This document shows, piece by piece, positions 56,233-64,000 of a DNA stretch of 64,000 nucleotides. The stretch is from NCBI GenBank assembly GCA_009909085.1, contig JAAANX010000034.1:1-64000 (forward strand), read 5' to 3'. The DNA is from Cyanobacteria bacterium GSL.Bin1 (GTDB lineage Bacteria > Cyanobacteriota > Cyanobacteriia > Cyanobacteriales > Rubidibacteraceae). The notes beneath the pieces are model-generated. The model saw only the letters and a list, made by a program, of their open reading frames with translations, was not told where the DNA came from and made no database searches. Both the position numbers and the translations under genes were made by a program. The number at the start of each line of letters is the position of its first letter. Position 1 is the first letter of the stretch.

Positions 56233-58428
56233 ATGGCCTCTAAAGCAGACAAACTTGAGCAAACACTTCGTGATCTCCGAACTTTTTTGGAAAAAACTGG
56301 ATTGAGTGAGCCATTAGATAGTGTGGTTCGAGAACTAACTGAGATCGAACACTATCTTGCTAAGAGAAAGGTGACAATGCAAATTGTTAGCCAAGATCTA
56401 AGCTTAGCTGAAGTTTTATATAACGTCGTCAGTACCGATCAAACTCTGACTAGTGCTTGTCAAATTAATTATAGTCATCTACCGGATGTTCCACAGCGGA
56501 TTGAACCTGAATACAAAGGATATTTAAGTTTACGTCAATTTTTATCGGAAGAGGGAACTGAAAGTTGGCAACGATATGAGTTACTTGCAACTCAAGAATA
56601 TCAAATTGGTAGAGATGAAAACTGCGCGATCGCGCTGCCAGCCAGCCATTATCGAGGTATTTCTCAACACCACGCCACCATCCGCTTTGTTGGCGAAAAA
56701 GAGGGGGAGGGGATTTGGGAATTATGTGACTTTAATAGTCGCAATGGCACATTTATTAATGGTCAACCAATTAAAGGATCTCAACAAATTGTTTCCGGAG
56801 ATAAAATTCACCTAGGCTTCCCAGAATCAAAACCTCAAATTGCAGAATTTTCCTTTGATAGTTATTTTGAAGTTCCTGACTACAGTGCCTCTCCCCTCTA
56901 TTGGGAATGTATAAACTGTGATTTTTTAGTAATGGTGGTTAATTCTTGTCAACCGCTGACTTCAGAAGAAGAAAATTTTCTGCAAAAACTAGATAGCACT
57001 CTCATTCATAAACCGCTAATTGTTGCTGATATTCCTTCACCGAATGATTCTGAAGAAGAAAAATTATCCTCCGAGCACTCGAGCCGCTTACAAAATTGGC
57101 TTGACCAACAAACCTTACAAAAAGAATTTGAACTGATTACAGTTTGTCTTCAACTCTTCTATGAGCAAGACACAAATCAGTCAGAGAATAACCCCGATTT
57201 TGACCAGTTACCGAAATCCTTAAAAAAAGCACAAGCTAATTTTTTTAAGTCTTTAGAAAATTTCGTCAAACGCCAGCCTGAAAATATCTTAGCTCAGCGC
57301 TTATCTAAATTGACACTTCCTTTATTAGAACCAATTGATCAAGCCCTTTCCAAGCAAGAAGAAAAATTGGATACAAAATTAGAGCAAGTTCAATCTAAGT
57401 TAGAAGGAATTGCCACTGTTAACTTGAAAGAAATGGGAAAAAAAGTGATCACGGAAGTAAATGAAGATAAAGATCGTTTCTTTAAACAAGTGAAGATAGA
57501 TTTTACGCGCTCTAAAGAGCAGTTACTATTTCTTCCCCATAAAGATAGTGTTAGTTACCAGCTTCATACAATCGTTCAAGAGCTAGATTCAATTATTTTG
57601 AAGAAAGAAGGGATGTGTTACATCCAACTTAGTACACCAGAATCAGCAGAAAGCCGAGAAATTAACCAGAAACTGCTGAAATTTATTTGTCAGGAACTGA
57701 GGCGTTGGGCTTATGCCGAATGGGAAAAAATCCTTAATACCTACGGCAATGGCGGATTAAAAGGGTTATATGATCGGTCTCATCAAAACCTCAATATTTT
57801 TCCGAATCTCTTACCTGAATCTCCTTTCCCATCTACCCCAGAAATTGATATCGAAAATATTTTAATGGGGTCATTTATGGAACATGAATGTGATAGTCAT
57901 TATAAGCAAGTTTCTTTTGCTGGTTACCTGATGAAACAACTGAGAAGTAATTTGATGCAAATTATGATGATGGTGACAATGGGATCAGCATTCATTGGCT
58001 TGGGTTTAGGCAGACAAGAAATTTCTGATTTTGTTGGAAAACACTTTACTGCTTTCCCACCTCTGTTTGGTGTAGTGATTGCTCTGATTTACTGGTTTTT
58101 CTCGGATCAGTATAATCAAGAACAAAAACTAAAAATACAAGAAACTACTGAAAAATTAAAAAATAAGTTACTGAGTTACTATCAATCCTTGCTGAAAAGT
58201 CTGTTAGATAAAATTTTTCAAGAACTCACCCTAAAGCTTGAAGAAGAAGAGCGCTCTTTCCGAGATGCTTTAAAGCTAGTTAACGAAACTTATGAACAAA
58301 AAATTTTAGAAAAAGAAAAAGAGCAAAATCAATATAAAGCTCAAATGGAAGAATTAAAGACTCAGCAAAACGAGTTGAAAAAGCAAAAGGAACACTATCT
58401 TAAGCTTAGCAAGGCTCTTCACATCTAG
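56233..58428 (+). CDS. FHA-domain membrane protein, possibly a degenerate dynamin-like protein
   Basis: The 731-residue protein has a helical N-terminus and an FHA domain (about residues 115-200; YQIGRDENC, YRGISQHHATI, DFNSRNGTFINGQ) that would bind phosphothreonine. A stretch resembling part of a GTPase fold follows (FLVMVVNSCQPLTSEEENF, KPLIVADIP). A coiled coil comes next, then two membrane helices (about 574-593 and 608-624) and a long C-terminal coiled coil. The two-helix hairpin flanked by coiled coils and the LVMVVNSCQPLT stretch recall bacterial dynamin-like proteins, but no P-loop or NKxD motif is present. If related, it has lost GTP binding. I do not recognise the family with certainty. 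It lies between two copies of an 18-bp motif. Confidence 0.7.
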   Translation: MASKADKLEQTLRDLRTFLEKTGLSEPLDSVVRELTEIEHYLAKRKVTMQIVSQDLSLAEVLYNVVSTDQTLTSACQINYSHLPDVPQRIEPEYKGYLSLRQFLSEEGTESWQRYELLATQEYQIGRDENCAIALPASHYRGISQHHATIRFVGEKEGEGIWELCDFNSRNGTFINGQPIKGSQQIVSGDKIHLGFPESKPQIAEFSFDSYFEVPDYSASPLYWECINCDFLVMVVNSCQPLTSEEENFLQKLDSTLIHKPLIVADIPSPNDSEEEKLSSEHSSRLQNWLDQQTLQKEFELITVCLQLFYEQDTNQSENNPDFDQLPKSLKKAQANFFKSLENFVKRQPENILAQRLSKLTLPLLEPIDQALSKQEEKLDTKLEQVQSKLEGIATVNLKEMGKKVITEVNEDKDRFFKQVKIDFTRSKEQLLFLPHKDSVSYQLHTIVQELDSIILKKEGMCYIQLSTPESAESREINQKLLKFICQELRRWAYAEWEKILNTYGNGGLKGLYDRSHQNLNIFPNLLPESPFPSTPEIDIENILMGSFMEHECDSHYKQVSFAGYLMKQLRSNLMQIMMMVTMGSAFIGLGLGRQEISDFVGKHFTAFPPLFGVVIALIYWFFSDQYNQEQKLKIQETTEKLKNKLLSYYQSLLKSLLDKIFQELTLKLEEEERSFRDALKLVNETYEQKILEKEKEQNQYKAQMEELKTQQNELKKQKEHYLKLSKALHI

Positions 58429-59027: not shown

Positions 59028-59918
59028 ATGACTGAAAGTATCGAAGTTTTAATCGATCAATGTGACCAACAATCGCAAGCTCTACTTTTAGATGGGACTA
59101 ATGCACTGGATGAAGTTGATCAGATTGTGGAGTTTACCAATAATCTTGTGCAAACCCTAAGCACAGCTGGTCAAGAAGCGCATCAAAATTGGGAAGCAAT
59201 TCTCAGTGAGCTGGAAATTGCCGAGGAACAATTTGAAACTGAGTTAGAGCAATCGAATACCGGTCTTGACGACTTTCGGCAAAGAATTGAAGATATTAGC
59301 AATAAAGTTGAGGAAGAACTGAATAATTTTAAGGCGAGTCTAGAGAATTTTCGCAATCGTAAAGAGGAAATTCAAGGAGAGTTAGATGAACAAGCCCAAA
59401 CAACTCGCTCAGACTTTGATCAGTATTCTCAACATCTTCAAGAAACTGAAGAAGAGATCGATAATCATCGCGAAACTGCTAACAGCAATCTTGATAACTT
59501 TAAGGGTTCTATTGACGCGACTTCTGAAAGCTTTTCAGAGAAAAAAGGTAATCTTCTAGAGCAATTTATAGCGCTCGAAGAAGAGTTGAAAGAAAAAATG
59601 CAGAGTTTATCTGATGACGTATCAACGGTCAAGGATGAAAGTAAAAATCAGGAACAAACCTTAGAGAGTAATCTTGATTCTTCGACCAACGAACTCATAT
59701 CAGCTTTGGCAACTAAATTTGCCGAAGAAGTGATTAGTGAGCTGACTGGCTCTTCTGAAGGTCTCAAACAAGCTCTAGATGCGGTCGATAGCGCTGGGGG
59801 AGAAGCCTCGGAATTAATCGATGGAGAAATTGGTGAGATTGTTGATAGCGTTTCCGAAGTCACTGACTTAATTGAAGAAGTAAAACCCATTTTAGAAGCA
59901 ATTGACCAAATTCTCTAA
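59028..59918 (+). CDS. Acidic coiled-coil protein 1 of the tandem set
   Basis: The 296-residue protein is almost entirely helical, with long heptad-like stretches rich in Glu, Gln, Ser and Leu. It has no membrane segment, signal peptide or catalytic motif. Charge is strongly acidic. It begins MTESIEVLIDQCDQQSQALL and ends DLIEEVKPILEAIDQIL. The whole protein is built like the next three: an N-terminal helical part, a central Asp/Ser/Glu-rich coiled coil, and a short less charged C-terminal helix. Function is unknown; a filament or membrane-associated scaffold is possible. The ribosome site AAAGGAAAAAT precedes the start. It heads the operon. Confidence 0.85.
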   Translation: MTESIEVLIDQCDQQSQALLLDGTNALDEVDQIVEFTNNLVQTLSTAGQEAHQNWEAILSELEIAEEQFETELEQSNTGLDDFRQRIEDISNKVEEELNNFKASLENFRNRKEEIQGELDEQAQTTRSDFDQYSQHLQETEEEIDNHRETANSNLDNFKGSIDATSESFSEKKGNLLEQFIALEEELKEKMQSLSDDVSTVKDESKNQEQTLESNLDSSTNELISALATKFAEEVISELTGSSEGLKQALDAVDSAGGEASELIDGEIGEIVDSVSEVTDLIEEVKPILEAIDQIL

Positions 59919-59955
59919 TTTTCCAGTTCATTTAATCATATAGGAGCAAAGAATC

Positions 59956-60948
59956 ATGGCAGGTATTGAAGAATTAGGAATTAATGTCGAACAAGCAACT
60001 GAGAAGTTAACCAGTCTTCAAAGCAACTTAAATGTTGCAGCAGAAACTATGGGAGAGCTTCAACAACAACTAGCAAGCACTGGCGAACAACTGCAACAAG
60101 CTCAACAAGCAGTGGAAACAGAATTAGAAGAAACTGCCCAACTTTTAGAAAACACTAGAACCGAGTTTGAAGGCTCTCGTACTGAAACGATTAATGCTTT
60201 ACAGGCGTTGCAAGATGCTTTAGAAGAATTGCAAGGGAAGCTAGATGAAGCAGACCAATCCATTGAAGATTCTGAAAGTAGTTTTGAGTCAGAAGCTGAT
60301 GCACGAAAATCTGATTTAGATAGCACTTATGAGGAGTTAACTCAGACATTTAGTGAACTTGCTGAAGCAATTTCTATCCTAGAAGATAACTTGTCAGGCA
60401 CGCGAGAAGAAGCTGAAAATACCTTTTCAACTTATGAAGAAAATCTGGGTAACCACCAGCAAGCAATGGAAACAGCTCAATCAGATTCAGAAAGTGATTT
60501 TGATGAGACTTCCAGTGAAATTGGAGAAAGCCTAAAAGCAACCCTAGAGTCCTTACTTTCTGATTTTAGTTCTGATTTAACCGATAACAAATTAAGTGAA
60601 ATTACTGCCACGTTTGAAGAAACCATCACAAAGTTTGAAGACAGTATTAACTCCTTTAATGAGGATACTTCAGATTTGGGAGATCAGCTGAAAGATCGGT
60701 TAAATGAGATTTTAGAAAATAGCCAAGACTACGCAGAGAATAAAGCCACTGAAGAAATCAAACAAAGTTTCCAAGATGCAATAGACGAGGTTGTTAAAAG
60801 TATGGCAACCGAAGTAGCAGAAAATATTGCCTTAATGACAACTGGAACTAGCGTTACTGGTGCAATTTCACCAATTCTTCCCCAATTAGCAGCAGCAAAA
60901 GCGCTCATTAGTGCAATGAATGAAGTCTTAGACTTTGTTGGTCTTTAA
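59956..60948 (+). CDS. Acidic coiled-coil protein 2 of the tandem set
   Basis: The 330-residue protein starts MAGIEELGINVEQATEKLTS, and most of it is coiled coil of Gln, Glu, Ser and Leu. It has no Cys and no Trp, and the only prolines are near the C-terminus (ISPILPQLAAAKALISAMNE). The last 50 residues are less acidic and moderately hydrophobic (ENIALMTTGTSVTGAISPIL), possibly a membrane-contacting or partner-binding helix. It begins 38 bp after protein 1, with AGGAG before the ATG. I do not recognise a family; it is a paralogue-like companion of the neighbouring genes. Confidence 0.85.
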   Translation: MAGIEELGINVEQATEKLTSLQSNLNVAAETMGELQQQLASTGEQLQQAQQAVETELEETAQLLENTRTEFEGSRTETINALQALQDALEELQGKLDEADQSIEDSESSFESEADARKSDLDSTYEELTQTFSELAEAISILEDNLSGTREEAENTFSTYEENLGNHQQAMETAQSDSESDFDETSSEIGESLKATLESLLSDFSSDLTDNKLSEITATFEETITKFEDSINSFNEDTSDLGDQLKDRLNEILENSQDYAENKATEEIKQSFQDAIDEVVKSMATEVAENIALMTTGTSVTGAISPILPQLAAAKALISAMNEVLDFVGL

Positions 60949-61006
60949 CCCTTAAACTCACTCAAAATCAAACAATAGCAATCACATTAATATTAGGAGA
61001 ACCCAA

Positions 61007-61933
61007 ATGGCTGATTTAGCAGATGCTCTCGATAGATTGTCTCTGATGGTAACTGAATTTCCTACCCGTCTCAACACAATTATTACTGAAGCAGAAGCAG
61101 TAGAACAACAAACACAAGCGTTAATGGAGAACGCGAAGGGAAAACAGGAACAAGTTACCCAAATCTTAGAACAGGTGCAAACTGCACTCAATGAAATGAG
61201 AGAAGAAACCTCAACTCGTCAATCAGATTTAGAATCAGGCATTTCTGAATTTGAAAATAGTGCATCTAACCTAACGACATTTCTTGAAGAAGCTCAACAA
61301 AAATTAGGCAGTGAAGTAGAAAAGACTCAATCTCAGTTTGGTCAACTACAAACAAAAATTCAAGAAGGTCGCGCTCAAACCGATTCTACTGAAAGTGAAA
61401 CTCGTAACACTTTCGATGAGGCTCGGACTTCTCTAGAAACTAATCAAGAAAAACTCAGTACGGCAATGGAAGCAACCATTGAAAAAATTGATGTTCTTCG
61501 TGAAAAGCTGGAATTAGCAAAAACCACAATGGGAGAAGAAGTGGAAAACTTCAGTAATGAAGTAAATACCAATCAACAAGAGGTAACCAGCAAAATTGAG
61601 ACACTAGCATCTGAATTCCGCAACATTTCAGAAATGTTTAGTAATAATTTAGATGCTATTTTAGGCTCGATGTATGGAGGAGTTAACGGCATGATCGATG
61701 AAGCTCAATCTAAAATCGAACAAGAGTTACAAGAACTCATTGATGATGGACTGAAACAAATAACGGATTCCATTGAACAAATGAGTGCAAAAATTATAGA
61801 ATCGGAATCCGAATCATCAGGAACACGACAGCTGGTTGAGCCTTTAATTGATGAATTATGGGAGTATGTTGATCCCATTCAAGAAGGAATTGAAGCTGTA
61901 GAAAGAGAAGCAAACAAACTGGGGGTAGCTTAA
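61007..61933 (+). CDS. Acidic coiled-coil protein 3 of the tandem set
   Basis: The 308-residue protein starts MADLADALDRLSLMVTEFPT and has long Gln/Glu/Ser-rich coiled coils from about residue 25 to 240. Its last part (LVEPLIDELWEYVDPIQEGI) resembles the ending of protein 1 (DLIEEVKPILEAI) in pattern. There is no Cys. It has no membrane segment or enzymatic motif. AGGAG precedes the start, 58 bp after protein 2. The function is unknown. The common C-terminal helix in proteins 1 and 3 suggests a shared binding partner. Confidence 0.85.
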   Translation: MADLADALDRLSLMVTEFPTRLNTIITEAEAVEQQTQALMENAKGKQEQVTQILEQVQTALNEMREETSTRQSDLESGISEFENSASNLTTFLEEAQQKLGSEVEKTQSQFGQLQTKIQEGRAQTDSTESETRNTFDEARTSLETNQEKLSTAMEATIEKIDVLREKLELAKTTMGEEVENFSNEVNTNQQEVTSKIETLASEFRNISEMFSNNLDAILGSMYGGVNGMIDEAQSKIEQELQELIDDGLKQITDSIEQMSAKIIESESESSGTRQLVEPLIDELWEYVDPIQEGIEAVEREANKLGVA

Positions 61934-62009
61934 TTTTTAGCTATTCCTAATAACCAGTCTTTAAGTTTTAAGAACGCTTACTATAATCATTAAGATTAGG
62001 AGGAAAAAA

Positions 62010-62915
62010 ATGGCCGTTGATTTTGAAGCTACCGCCCTAGAAACCGCCGATAAACTGGAAGCATTGATGGATCGCGCAGCTGAAACCGAAACAAATTTAA
62101 TTGCAGCTAGAGAAGAATTAGGGCAAGTTGCCGAACAATTCGATTTTTATTGGGATGATTTGGAAACGAAAGCACAAGCCCTTTTAGACCGTCTGAATGC
62201 TGCAAAAGAACAAGTGCAATCAGAAGGAGAAGTCTTAAGAACTGGGATCGTAACCCTGAAAGATACAACCGAACAATTGCAATCAGAAGCAGAGCAAGAA
62301 TTAGAAAATACCACCTCTGAATTAGCATCTCTTGGGGAAGATTCGGAAACAAAAGGAAGTGATTTAGATGAACTTTTCAATTCTATTGAAGAGAGTTTGG
62401 AATCTCTGCGAAGTAAAGTTGAAGAGGTTAGCCAAGAGTTAGAAGAAGATGCGACCGATATAGAAAATCGCTTAAATGAGGATATTGCTCAAGAAATTCA
62501 AACTCATGAAGAAGAAATTGAAGAAAATTCCAATCGTGTCCAAAGCACCATTTCTGAAGAAGCAATTTCTGAACTGACAGAAAAGATCGCTGAACTTAAT
62601 AGCGAAATTGATGGTCTCATTGAAGCTTCTCAATCAAAAGCAGAAGAAAAGGGAAATGAGACTCGCGAAAAGTCCGAAGAAGTTGTCGCTGAAACACAAA
62701 AACAAGAAGAGGATCAATTTGAGGAGTTAATCAGTCAAGCACAAGAATTGCGGAATACCCTAAACAGTATTGGAGAGACAGTTATTGATTTGGGGAATAC
62801 TGTTGATACTAGCAAAGACACATTAGTGACTGGTATGAATACCACAAATGTTGGTCTGGAAGCTGCAATTGGCGTGTTTGCTGAAGCAAAAGAATTATTG
62901 GGAAGATTTACTTAG
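62010..62915 (+). CDS. Acidic coiled-coil protein 4 of the tandem set
   Basis: The 301-residue protein starts MAVDFEATALETADKLEALM and is coiled coil nearly throughout, without Pro or Cys and with a single Trp (DFYWDDLE). It is the most acidic-looking of the set, with Glu-rich runs in the centre. Its C-terminal 60 residues (LRNTLNSIGETVIDLGNTVD, GLEAAIGVFAEAKELLGRFT) are less charged. AGGAGG precedes the ATG. It is the last gene of the operon; a terminator follows within 30 bp. Family and function are unknown to me. Confidence 0.85.
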   Translation: MAVDFEATALETADKLEALMDRAAETETNLIAAREELGQVAEQFDFYWDDLETKAQALLDRLNAAKEQVQSEGEVLRTGIVTLKDTTEQLQSEAEQELENTTSELASLGEDSETKGSDLDELFNSIEESLESLRSKVEEVSQELEEDATDIENRLNEDIAQEIQTHEEEIEENSNRVQSTISEEAISELTEKIAELNSEIDGLIEASQSKAEEKGNETREKSEEVVAETQKQEEDQFEELISQAQELRNTLNSIGETVIDLGNTVDTSKDTLVTGMNTTNVGLEAAIGVFAEAKELLGRFT

Positions 62916-62943: not shown

Positions 62944-62990
62944 GCTGTTCTATCTTAACTTATTGTCAAGCTAGAACAGCCTCCTTTTTT
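62944..62990 (+). terminator. Rho-independent terminator after the coiled-coil operon
   Basis: GCTGTTCTA and TAGAACAGC form a perfect 9-bp stem with a 19-base loop, followed by CTCCTTTTTT. It closes the four-gene operon and separates it from the sigma-like gene. Confidence 0.75.
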
Positions 62991-63039
62991 AAGAGCTTTG
63001 CTAAGAAAAAATATATTAAGTTCTAAATTATTTTACAGT

Positions 63040-64000
63040 ATGAATAACTATGAAGCAATTCTTAAAAATTTTTCTAGTGTTATTTATTTAAGAACAAACT
63101 CAACCACAAACCACATTATTCCAATTTACCAATCTCATCCCGTTCTAAAAGCACTAATCGAAGAAGTTTATTGTTTAATCGCAAACTATTCTGATGTGGA
63201 TTGGGCAAATCATTTTTTACAAATATTGAGATCATTTAAACAAAATATTTATTTCTTAAAAAAAGAAAAAGCAAGTCTTTACTGGACTTATTCAATTTTA
63301 GGTAGCAGCTATTATCAGCAGTTCCTCTTCTGTTATTTGCAAACACCAAGTTGGCAAGCTGCTAAAAAAGTTAATTTCCAACTGCGACAATCTTTTAATG
63401 TTAACTTGCAGTATCCCCTTGAAGAGTGTTTTGTTTTAGCTTTAGAACAAGCTCTCAATCCAACTAGACTCCTGAAACGTTTTGATGTTAAGACGGGGGT
63501 TTCTGCTCAATCTTATGCTTTTACGGTTCTAAGTCGGTTGATTAAGCATCAGATTGCCAAGGAATTAAAGTCGAAATCAATCAAATTATCAGGATATGGC
63601 TTTCTTCAATCAGTGAGTCCTACCCAACTAGAAAAAGGCTTAGTCAGATGGGGAATTACAGGCAATGAATTAATTCGGTATCGCTTAATTTGGCAATCGT
63701 TTAAAGATCTGCTAAATGAAATTAGTGTTAATAATACTCAACATCGCCGTCAAAGCTCTTCTGTGCGATCGCTGAACAACGAGCAAATTTTAAGACTCAA
63801 AAGTCTTTATCAAGACTATGCGAGAGCTTTTAAGTTGGAAGCAAAGCCCTTAAATCGCCAAGATATTGAAGAAGTTTTAGACACTTGTTTGAAAGCAACA
63901 CAGGAGGGGGAACGGAAAAATAAAATTTCCTTAGATGCACTTCAAGTTTCTCCTTCAGTTAGCGAGGAGACTTCACCGTTAGTGGCTAATCCTTGGGAAA
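63040..64000 (+). CDS. Cyanobacterial sigma-70-like factor, N-terminal part (cut by window end)
   Basis: The ATG at 63040 opens a frame of 320 codons that runs off the window. It reads MNNYEAILKNFSSVIYLRTN onwards. The central part, LLKRFDVKTGVSAQSYAFTV followed by LSRLIKHQIAKELKS, and the part after it, GFLQSVSPTQLEKGLVRWGI followed by ITGNELIRYRLIWQSFKDLL, match the layout I know from a cyanobacterial group of large ECF-like sigma-70 factors. Its C-terminal region 4, which recognises promoters, would lie outside the window. I infer the family from this pattern. Position after the coiled-coil operon makes it a candidate regulator. Confidence 0.65.
   Translation, partial: MNNYEAILKNFSSVIYLRTNSTTNHIIPIYQSHPVLKALIEEVYCLIANYSDVDWANHFLQILRSFKQNIYFLKKEKASLYWTYSILGSSYYQQFLFCYLQTPSWQAAKKVNFQLRQSFNVNLQYPLEECFVLALEQALNPTRLLKRFDVKTGVSAQSYAFTVLSRLIKHQIAKELKSKSIKLSGYGFLQSVSPTQLEKGLVRWGITGNELIRYRLIWQSFKDLLNEISVNNTQHRRQSSSVRSLNNEQILRLKSLYQDYARAFKLEAKPLNRQDIEEVLDTCLKATQEGERKNKISLDALQVSPSVSEETSPLVANPWE

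What the first reader, a model, noticed from the sequence alone, without database searches (positions are those of the whole stretch)
59028..62915. Four consecutive acidic coiled-coil genes of similar size
Four genes of 296, 330, 308 and 301 codons, each with its own strong AGGAG-type ribosome site and 37-76 bp spacing, encode nearly all-helical, strongly acidic proteins of the same general layout. They are followed by one terminator. Proteins 1 and 3 share the pattern of the last helix. I know no described operon of this type. They could form a filament, a scaffold or a membrane-remodelling complex.
Basis: partly seen in the sequence, partly recalled or inferred. Interest (0 to 1): 0.85.

Follow-up and report, generated by a model that had tools for sequence, protein, structure and literature searches.

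The report
Four-rod operon tied to bacterial toxins
Four neighbouring cyanobacterial genes encode a matched set of long rod-shaped proteins that recurs as a unit across the class, and in a third of the loci examined diverse toxin genes sit in or beside it and start with a copy of one rod's end helix, so the rods are probably the carrier of an undescribed toxin-handling or delivery system.

Summary
P1-P4 are divergent paralogs: all six profile pairs align collinearly and beat reversed and shuffled controls. They form one heritable unit. P1-P2-P3-P4 recur in this order in nearly all of 45 loci from 44 cyanobacterial genomes, with near-constant lengths (297, 330, 308, 298 aa). In five genomes a second tetrad, E1-E4, repeats the unit subunit by subunit. 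No described family covers them.

Function comes from the relatives. In 15 of 45 loci, genes in or beside the cassette (mostly between P2 and P3) encode proteins with one short N-terminal helix and 18 unrelated C-termini: Ntox24/28/44/5, pretoxin-HINT, peptidase C39, Amidase_6. One is followed by a SUKH immunity gene. The helix matches P4 residues 18-41 and was not found (strong hits) outside cassette genomes. The upstream FHA protein folds like a mitofusin/BDLP dynamin without GTPase motifs; Ser/Thr kinases are usual neighbours.

Best reading: P1-P4 build a straight rod that carries tagged polymorphic toxins, held at the membrane by the FHA-pseudo-dynamin. Export is inferred, not shown. The window's own genome has no recognisable tagged toxin.

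The parts
56233..58428 (+). FHA-pseudo-dynamin: FHA domain (aa ~93-213) inserted in a dynamin-like protein with a membrane-insertion segment (aa ~562-610)
   Evidence: FHA PF00498 E 3e-16; AF2 pLDDT 81; Foldseek top hits BDLP 2j69 E 2.8e-10, 5oxf, IniA, MFN; VIA Z 16.4 to MFN2 over 295 residues; no GxxxxGK[ST] or [NT]KxD in any of 13 homologs; linked to the cassette in 30 of 45 loci
59028..59918 (+). P1, 296 aa acidic rod protein
   Evidence: orthologs in 42 of 45 loci; predicted as one ~210-residue helix plus a C-terminal helix, low confidence (pLDDT 57); hydrophobic periodicity 3.59
59956..60948 (+). P2, 330 aa acidic rod protein with a conserved mildly hydrophobic C-terminal tail (SPILPQLAAAK...)
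   Evidence: orthologs in 43 of 45 loci; alignment A6
61007..61933 (+). P3, 308 aa acidic rod protein
   Evidence: orthologs in 45 of 45 loci; periodicity 3.59
62010..62915 (+). P4, 301 aa acidic rod protein; residues 18-41 match the N-terminal tag of toxins in relatives
   Evidence: orthologs in 45 of 45 loci; hhalign tag vs P4 score 29.6-29.9 against 8-18 for the other families and at most 16.8 for column-shuffled tags
62944..62990 (+). terminator-like stem-loop with T run
   Evidence: read from the sequence; loop of 19 nt, so not listed by the scan
62998..64000 (+). neighbour: start of a 531 aa protein with weak sigma-70-like matches, continuing past the window and followed by DUF1822, CHAT-FHA-WD40, Ser/Thr kinase and COP23 genes
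   Evidence: the Sig-DUF1822 pair lies next to the cassette in 5 loci

Best explanation
P1-P4 are the four obligate, non-interchangeable subunits of one straight, roughly 45-nm, all-helical rod assembly (300 residues at 0.15 nm each) that serves as the carrier of a cyanobacterial polymorphic-toxin system. Toxins dock on it by a 25-residue helix that imitates the N-terminal helix of P4 (residues 18-41). The FHA-pseudo-dynamin tethers the assembly to the membrane and reads phosphorylation by neighbouring Ser/Thr kinases, and the loaded toxins are released or exported towards rival cells. Shown by computation: four paralogs, conserved order and lengths, en-bloc duplication, toxin domains with a shared tag, and tag similarity to P4. 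Well supported: a functional link between cassette and toxins, about 0.9. Inferred: the rod geometry, docking by helix imitation, tethering, phospho-control and export. In the window's own genome the carrier is present without a recognisable tagged toxin.
For: Four paralogs: true profile scores 88-123, reversed 63-81, block-shuffled maximum 79. Order P1-P2-P3-P4 in nearly all of 45 loci from 44 genomes. E1-E4 map one-to-one on P1-P4 in order: 104, 104.5, 98 and 55, off-diagonal at most 63. Lengths within 6 aa of the median in 88-95% of orthologs, and one hydrophobic stripe coherent over about 300 residues at 3.51-3.59. Twenty-five tagged proteins in 15 loci fall into 18 unrelated C-terminal clusters, including Ntox24 plus PT-HINT, Ntox44, Ntox28 (E 1e-32), PT-HINT, peptidase C39, Amidase_6 and Ntox5, with a SUKH immunity gene next to one. 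In 390 genomes of the class, P4 was found in 24 and the tag with E below 1e-9 in 12, all among those 24. The tag matches P4 only. FHA-dynamin fold. Seven loci continue with Wza-like and Wzc-like export genes, a kinase and the FHA-dynamin.
Against: Thirty of 45 loci, the window included, show no tagged toxin, and the window genome has none by three searches. There is no direct evidence of export. No translocase is shared by all loci: Wza/Wzc occur in only 7 of 45. The P1 model is low in confidence, and no complex could be modelled. A 24-residue helix match is short and could be a common export or sorting signal rather than imitation of P4. The tag profile A12 was built partly from the same genomes that score, so only the absence outside cassette genomes is free of circularity.
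Confidence: 0.5

Rival explanations
1. Intracellular response system: P1-P4 hold tagged toxins inactive inside the producing cell, and the kinase/FHA/pseudo-dynamin arm releases them on membrane damage or phage attack, killing the cell.
For: No signal peptide on P1-P4 or on most toxins; FHA, kinase, CHAT and caspase-like genes nearby; PT-HINT autoprocessing domains would allow release; dynamin-like defence systems are known (LeoA is among the fold hits).
Against: C-terminal diversity with dedicated immunity genes such as SUKH and an Amidase_6 effector fit killing of other cells better; no PADLOC model matched beyond coiled-coil noise.
Confidence: 0.25
2. P1-P4 are an ordinary intracellular scaffold or cytoskeletal/membrane-organising complex with a housekeeping or stress role; the toxin genes merely exploit or hitchhike on it in some lineages.
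For: Most loci, the window included, lack tagged toxins; cyanobacterial coiled-coil-rich proteins can form filaments (PMC7002697); E1-E4 tetrads occur without toxins.
Against: Presence is patchy (24 of 390 genomes), unlike housekeeping; tagged toxins of unrelated C-terminus enter the same cassette in many families and the tag was found only in cassette genomes.
Confidence: 0.2
3. P1-P4 are themselves a multi-component alpha-helical pore-forming toxin (MakABE/XaxAB-like), with tagged toxins as passengers.
For: Weak matches to MakB and XaxA models; size and all-helical make-up.
Against: All far below cut-off (17.5 of 240 and 11 of 125 bits); no hydrophobic head segment: highest 19-residue hydropathy 0.57-1.35; one stripe through the whole length suggests a plain rod.
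Confidence: 0.04

Closest known systems
[quoted passage not shown] 2012, PMC3482391)
   Same: Constant N-terminal part, variable C-terminal Ntox and other toxin domains, HINT, immunity genes (SUKH) in the relatives.
   Different: The trafficking routes tabulated there that were read (T2SS, T5SS, T6SS, PVC, T7SS, PrsW, MuF; TcdB/TcaC also mentioned) do not include a coiled-coil tetrad with an FHA-dynamin; the term coiled-coil does not occur in the text held. The window locus itself has no toxin.
Type VIIb secretion (LXG toxins with small helical partners, EssC)
   Same: Helical N-terminal region of toxins next to genes for helical partners; FHA domains (in EssC) in the machinery.
   Different: No EssC over cut-off in 18 cassette genomes; partners are 300-aa rods, not ~100-aa hairpins.
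Bacterial dynamin-like proteins (BDLP, IniA, Cj-DLP1/2, SynDLP) and mitofusins
   Same: Overall fold of the FHA protein, with membrane segment in the position of the paddle.
   Different: FHA domain inserted; GTPase motifs G1 and G4 absent in all 13 homologs aligned.
Cyanobacterial coiled-coil-rich filament proteins (Slr7083, HmpF; PMC7002697)
   Same: Cyanobacterial coiled-coil proteins, possibly assembling.
   Different: No homology beyond coiled-coil noise (HmpF 12.8-15.6 bits of 200; no plasmid hit, so none on pSYSA if that record is in the collection); a fixed four-gene unit with fixed lengths.

Membership tests
Polymorphic toxin system (relatives' loci) | constant N-terminal region with variable C-terminal toxin domains | tested here: met
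   25 tagged proteins, 18 C-terminal clusters, several Ntox/HINT domains
Polymorphic toxin system (relatives' loci) | cognate immunity gene next to the toxin | tested here: inconclusive
   SUKH gene at L141 (E 3e-10); LRR protein at L074; other downstream genes have no known family
Polymorphic toxin system (window locus) | toxin gene with tag in the window genome | tested here: not met
   no convincing tag match in G000
Polymorphic toxin system (relatives' loci) | toxin is exported and acts on other cells | not testable with these tools
   needs experiment
Type VII secretion | EssC/EccC ATPase in the genome | tested here: not met
   TIGR03928: 0 of 18 cassette genomes over cut-off; partial FtsK-like matches in 8
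Type VII secretion | WXG100/LXG domain in P1-P4 | tested here: not met
   13-18 bits, below cut-offs
SMC/Rad50, apolipoprotein, intermediate filament | family model above curated cut-off | tested here: not met
   all below cut-off, many families at once as expected for coiled coils
Alpha-helical pore-forming toxin | family model above cut-off and hydrophobic head segment | tested here: not met
   17.5 bits of 240 for MakB, 11 of 125 for XaxA; hydropathy maximum 1.35
Dynamin superfamily (FHA protein) | dynamin/BDLP-like fold | tested here: met
   BDLP E 2.8e-10; MFN2 Z 16.4, rmsd 7.2 over 295 residues
Dynamin superfamily (FHA protein) | GTP-binding motifs G1 and G4 | tested here: not met
   absent in all 13 aligned homologs; hence pseudo-GTPase
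Cyanobacterial coiled-coil-rich filament protein | self-assembly into filaments | not testable with these tools
   needs experiment

The most novel reading that the evidence does not exclude
A previously undescribed type of bacterial toxin-delivery machine: a hetero-tetrameric, fixed-length helical rod loaded with interchangeable toxins through a P4-like docking helix, attached to the membrane by an FHA-regulated pseudo-dynamin, and in some lineages coupled to a Wza/Wzc-type envelope channel.
Probability: 0.35. Interest if true: 0.93.

Novelty: new variant of a known kind. Interest (0 to 1): 0.78.

Why it matters
How many polymorphic toxins leave the cell is unknown, and little is known about antagonism in cyanobacteria. 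A four-rod carrier with a short, transplantable docking helix would be a new trafficking principle for such toxins, would give function to several cyanobacterial protein families that now have none, and makes a testable prediction: any protein given the 25-residue helix should bind the rods. The kinase-FHA-pseudo-dynamin arm suggests phospho-regulated membrane work by a dynamin without GTPase activity.

Tried and rejected
Family libraries for P1-P4: Pfam, NCBIfam and PADLOC gave only coiled-coil noise, with dozens of unrelated families below cut-off. Profile search of the PDB with P2: only designed bundles, apolipoproteins and similar noise. Single-protein and P4-profile scans of genome contigs: nothing, then one locus, Aphanothece sp. 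CMT-3BRIN-NPC111, the same as L036. Plasmid and phage collections: no match, so no sign of a plasmid or phage element; a viral-contig scan could not be run with the divergent alignment. AF2 of P1: low confidence, not used for a fold search. T7SS as the exporter: rejected. Slr7083 filament link: rejected. The hydrophobic pretoxin hairpin as the cassette-specific signal: rejected, since it also occurs in large toxins elsewhere without the tag. P4-like helix on cargo in the window genome: none found. Literature: no description of the cassette found in the open-access library; bioRxiv and subscription papers were not searchable.
Full report
Observation. P2-P4 have clear AGGAG-type ribosome sites, P1 a weaker one. 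A terminator-like stem with a T run follows P4 (62944-62990). The proteins are strongly acidic, lack signal peptides and match no curated family. The window lies on a 103.6-kb contig (C34) of a cyanobacterial genome.

A conserved four-gene unit. One ortholog search in 60 relatives found P3 in four further genomes, and the wider loci showed all four genes in the same order. Profile searches with P4 found clear orthologs in about 25 of 293 genomes of the order and 24 of 390 sampled genomes of the class. In 45 loci from 44 genomes, P1-P4 are found in 42, 43, 45 and 45 loci; the missing ones are mostly at contig ends or in two genomes with a split, duplicated cassette. Lengths hardly vary (medians 297, 330, 308, 298; 88-95% within 6 residues), unusual for coiled-coil proteins and suggestive of rods that must match in length.

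Four paralogs and a duplicated tetrad. Coiled coils give falsely significant profile matches, so I used controls. All six P1-P4 pairs score 88-123 over 245-302 columns, collinear from the N-terminus; the same profiles reversed score 63-81, and 12 block shuffles per pair reach at most 79. The weakest pair, P3-P4 (88 versus 80 reversed), rests mainly on the others. In five genomes three or four further genes follow P4; these E1-E4 match P1-P4 one to one (104, 104.5, 98, 55; all off-diagonal values at most 63). E2 carries an extra N-terminal part of about 200 residues with a hydrophobic segment. The tetrad was therefore duplicated as a set, which argues for four distinct positions in one assembly.

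Shape. Conserved hydrophobic positions repeat every 3.59 residues in P1 and P3 over the whole length, 3.57 in P4 and 3.51 in P2, far above shuffled columns. A repeat near 3.6 means an almost straight stripe on a straight helix rather than a classic supercoiled heptad. AlphaFold2 gives P1 as one helix of about 210 residues plus a C-terminal helix, at low confidence (pLDDT 57). The 45-nm rod is inference from length.

The toxin link. In relatives, genes in or beside the cassette encode proteins that share the first 25-30 residues (MSxxxLxARIDxARxxxQxAxxxLxEAR) and then diverge. I list 25 in 15 loci; their last 100 residues form 18 unrelated clusters. Known domains among them: Ntox24 with PT-HINT (L037); Ntox44 twice (L074, L076); Ntox28 (L143), PT-HINT (L144) and peptidase C39 (L148); peptidase C39 (L155), Amidase_6 (L144), DUF6973 (L151) and Ntox5 (L154). 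The L141 toxin is followed by a SUKH immunity gene. In 12 loci at least one such gene lies between P2 and P3; four have one just after P4. This constant-N, variable-C pattern with immunity is the hallmark of polymorphic toxins (PMC3482391).

The tag belongs to the cassette and looks like P4. A profile of the toxins' N-terminal 130 residues found the tag in 3 of 286 order genomes, all three with the cassette; the hydrophobic pretoxin part alone also occurs in large toxins elsewhere. In 390 class genomes, strong tag hits (E below 1e-9) occur in 12, all among the 24 with P4; six weak partial hits elsewhere look like noise. Caveat: that profile contains members from those 12 genomes; however, the earlier profile from three order genomes had already picked out six of the class loci at 23-38 bits. 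Aligned with all eight rod families, the tag matches only P4, residues 18-41, ungapped: 29.6-29.9 against 8-18 for the others; 60 column shuffles per profile reach at most 16.8. Two readings remain: the toxin imitates P4 to dock on P1-P3, or P4 and toxins share a sorting signal read by something else.

The FHA protein. The gene upstream of P1 has orthologs in 30 of 45 loci. Its model is good (pLDDT 81), and Foldseek ranks BDLP, the Campylobacter DLP pair and IniA first. VIA-align gives Z 16.4 with MFN2 over 295 residues spanning the chain. The FHA domain sits inside the GTPase-like domain, and the GTP-binding motifs are missing in all 13 homologs. It is a pseudo-dynamin that presumably reads phospho-threonine; a Ser/Thr kinase gene is in 36 of 45 loci. 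In seven loci P4 is followed by a Wza-like export protein, a Wzc-like protein, a kinase and the FHA-dynamin, the only hint of an exit route.

Mechanism and its limits. I propose that P1-P4 form a rod that carries tagged toxins, is held at the membrane by the FHA-pseudo-dynamin and is controlled by kinases. The unit and its toxin link are well supported; docking, tethering and export are inferred. Most loci, the window included, have no tagged toxin, so the window locus itself should be filed as a carrier module and not as a complete toxin system. An intracellular, suicide-type role is the main rival.

Novelty. The toxins belong to a known kind. The carrier matches no trafficking route found in the survey paper, T7SS is excluded, and no paper in the searchable library describes the cassette. 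Preprints and subscription journals could not be checked.

Noticed in passing
L035:6973-10486, L069:10719-14245, L070:10895-15301, L072:10878-17988, L078:11002-15571: A second tetrad E1-E4 follows P1-P4 (E4 seen in three of the five); E2 has an extra ~200 aa N-terminus with a hydrophobic segment and a low-complexity region.
   Followed up: partly
L079:4963-6762; L146:6132-6986: Cargo-like proteins in the cassette without the N-terminal tag but with a similar helix at the C-terminus (..LDEAYAKLQS.., ..IKEASARLESLL..); two of them, and the N-tagged L152:11486-12463, have Gly/Ala/acid-rich beta-like repeats.
   Followed up: no
L074:5844-14982 and L076:5305-13113: Split cassette: P1, P1', toxin(s) and P4' on one strand, P2-P3-P4 on the other, with Sig and DUF1822 genes beside.
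   Followed up: no
L036:9887-10509: A PemK/MazF toxin-antitoxin pair is inserted between P3 and P4.
   Followed up: partly
contig C34 65867-68398 (L008:12868-15399), beyond the window: CHAT-FHA-WD40 protein with nearly identical tandem WD40 repeats, suggesting recent repeat expansion or conversion.
   Followed up: no
window 62998 to contig C34 71813, beyond the window: Sigma-like 531 aa, DUF1822, CHAT-FHA-WD40, Ser/Thr kinase and COP23 genes, followed by caspase-like and two-partner-secretion genes; parts of this set recur at other cassettes.
   Followed up: partly
L141:5744-9059 and the equivalents in L142-L144, L146, L148, L150: Wza-like (Poly_export/SLBB) and Wzc-like genes directly after P4, in these loci always followed by a Ser/Thr kinase and the FHA-dynamin.
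   Followed up: partly
L035:15054-16223 and similar genes in 11 loci: Glutamate-receptor-like ligand-gated channel (SBP_bac_3 plus Lig_chan) next to the cassette.
   Followed up: no
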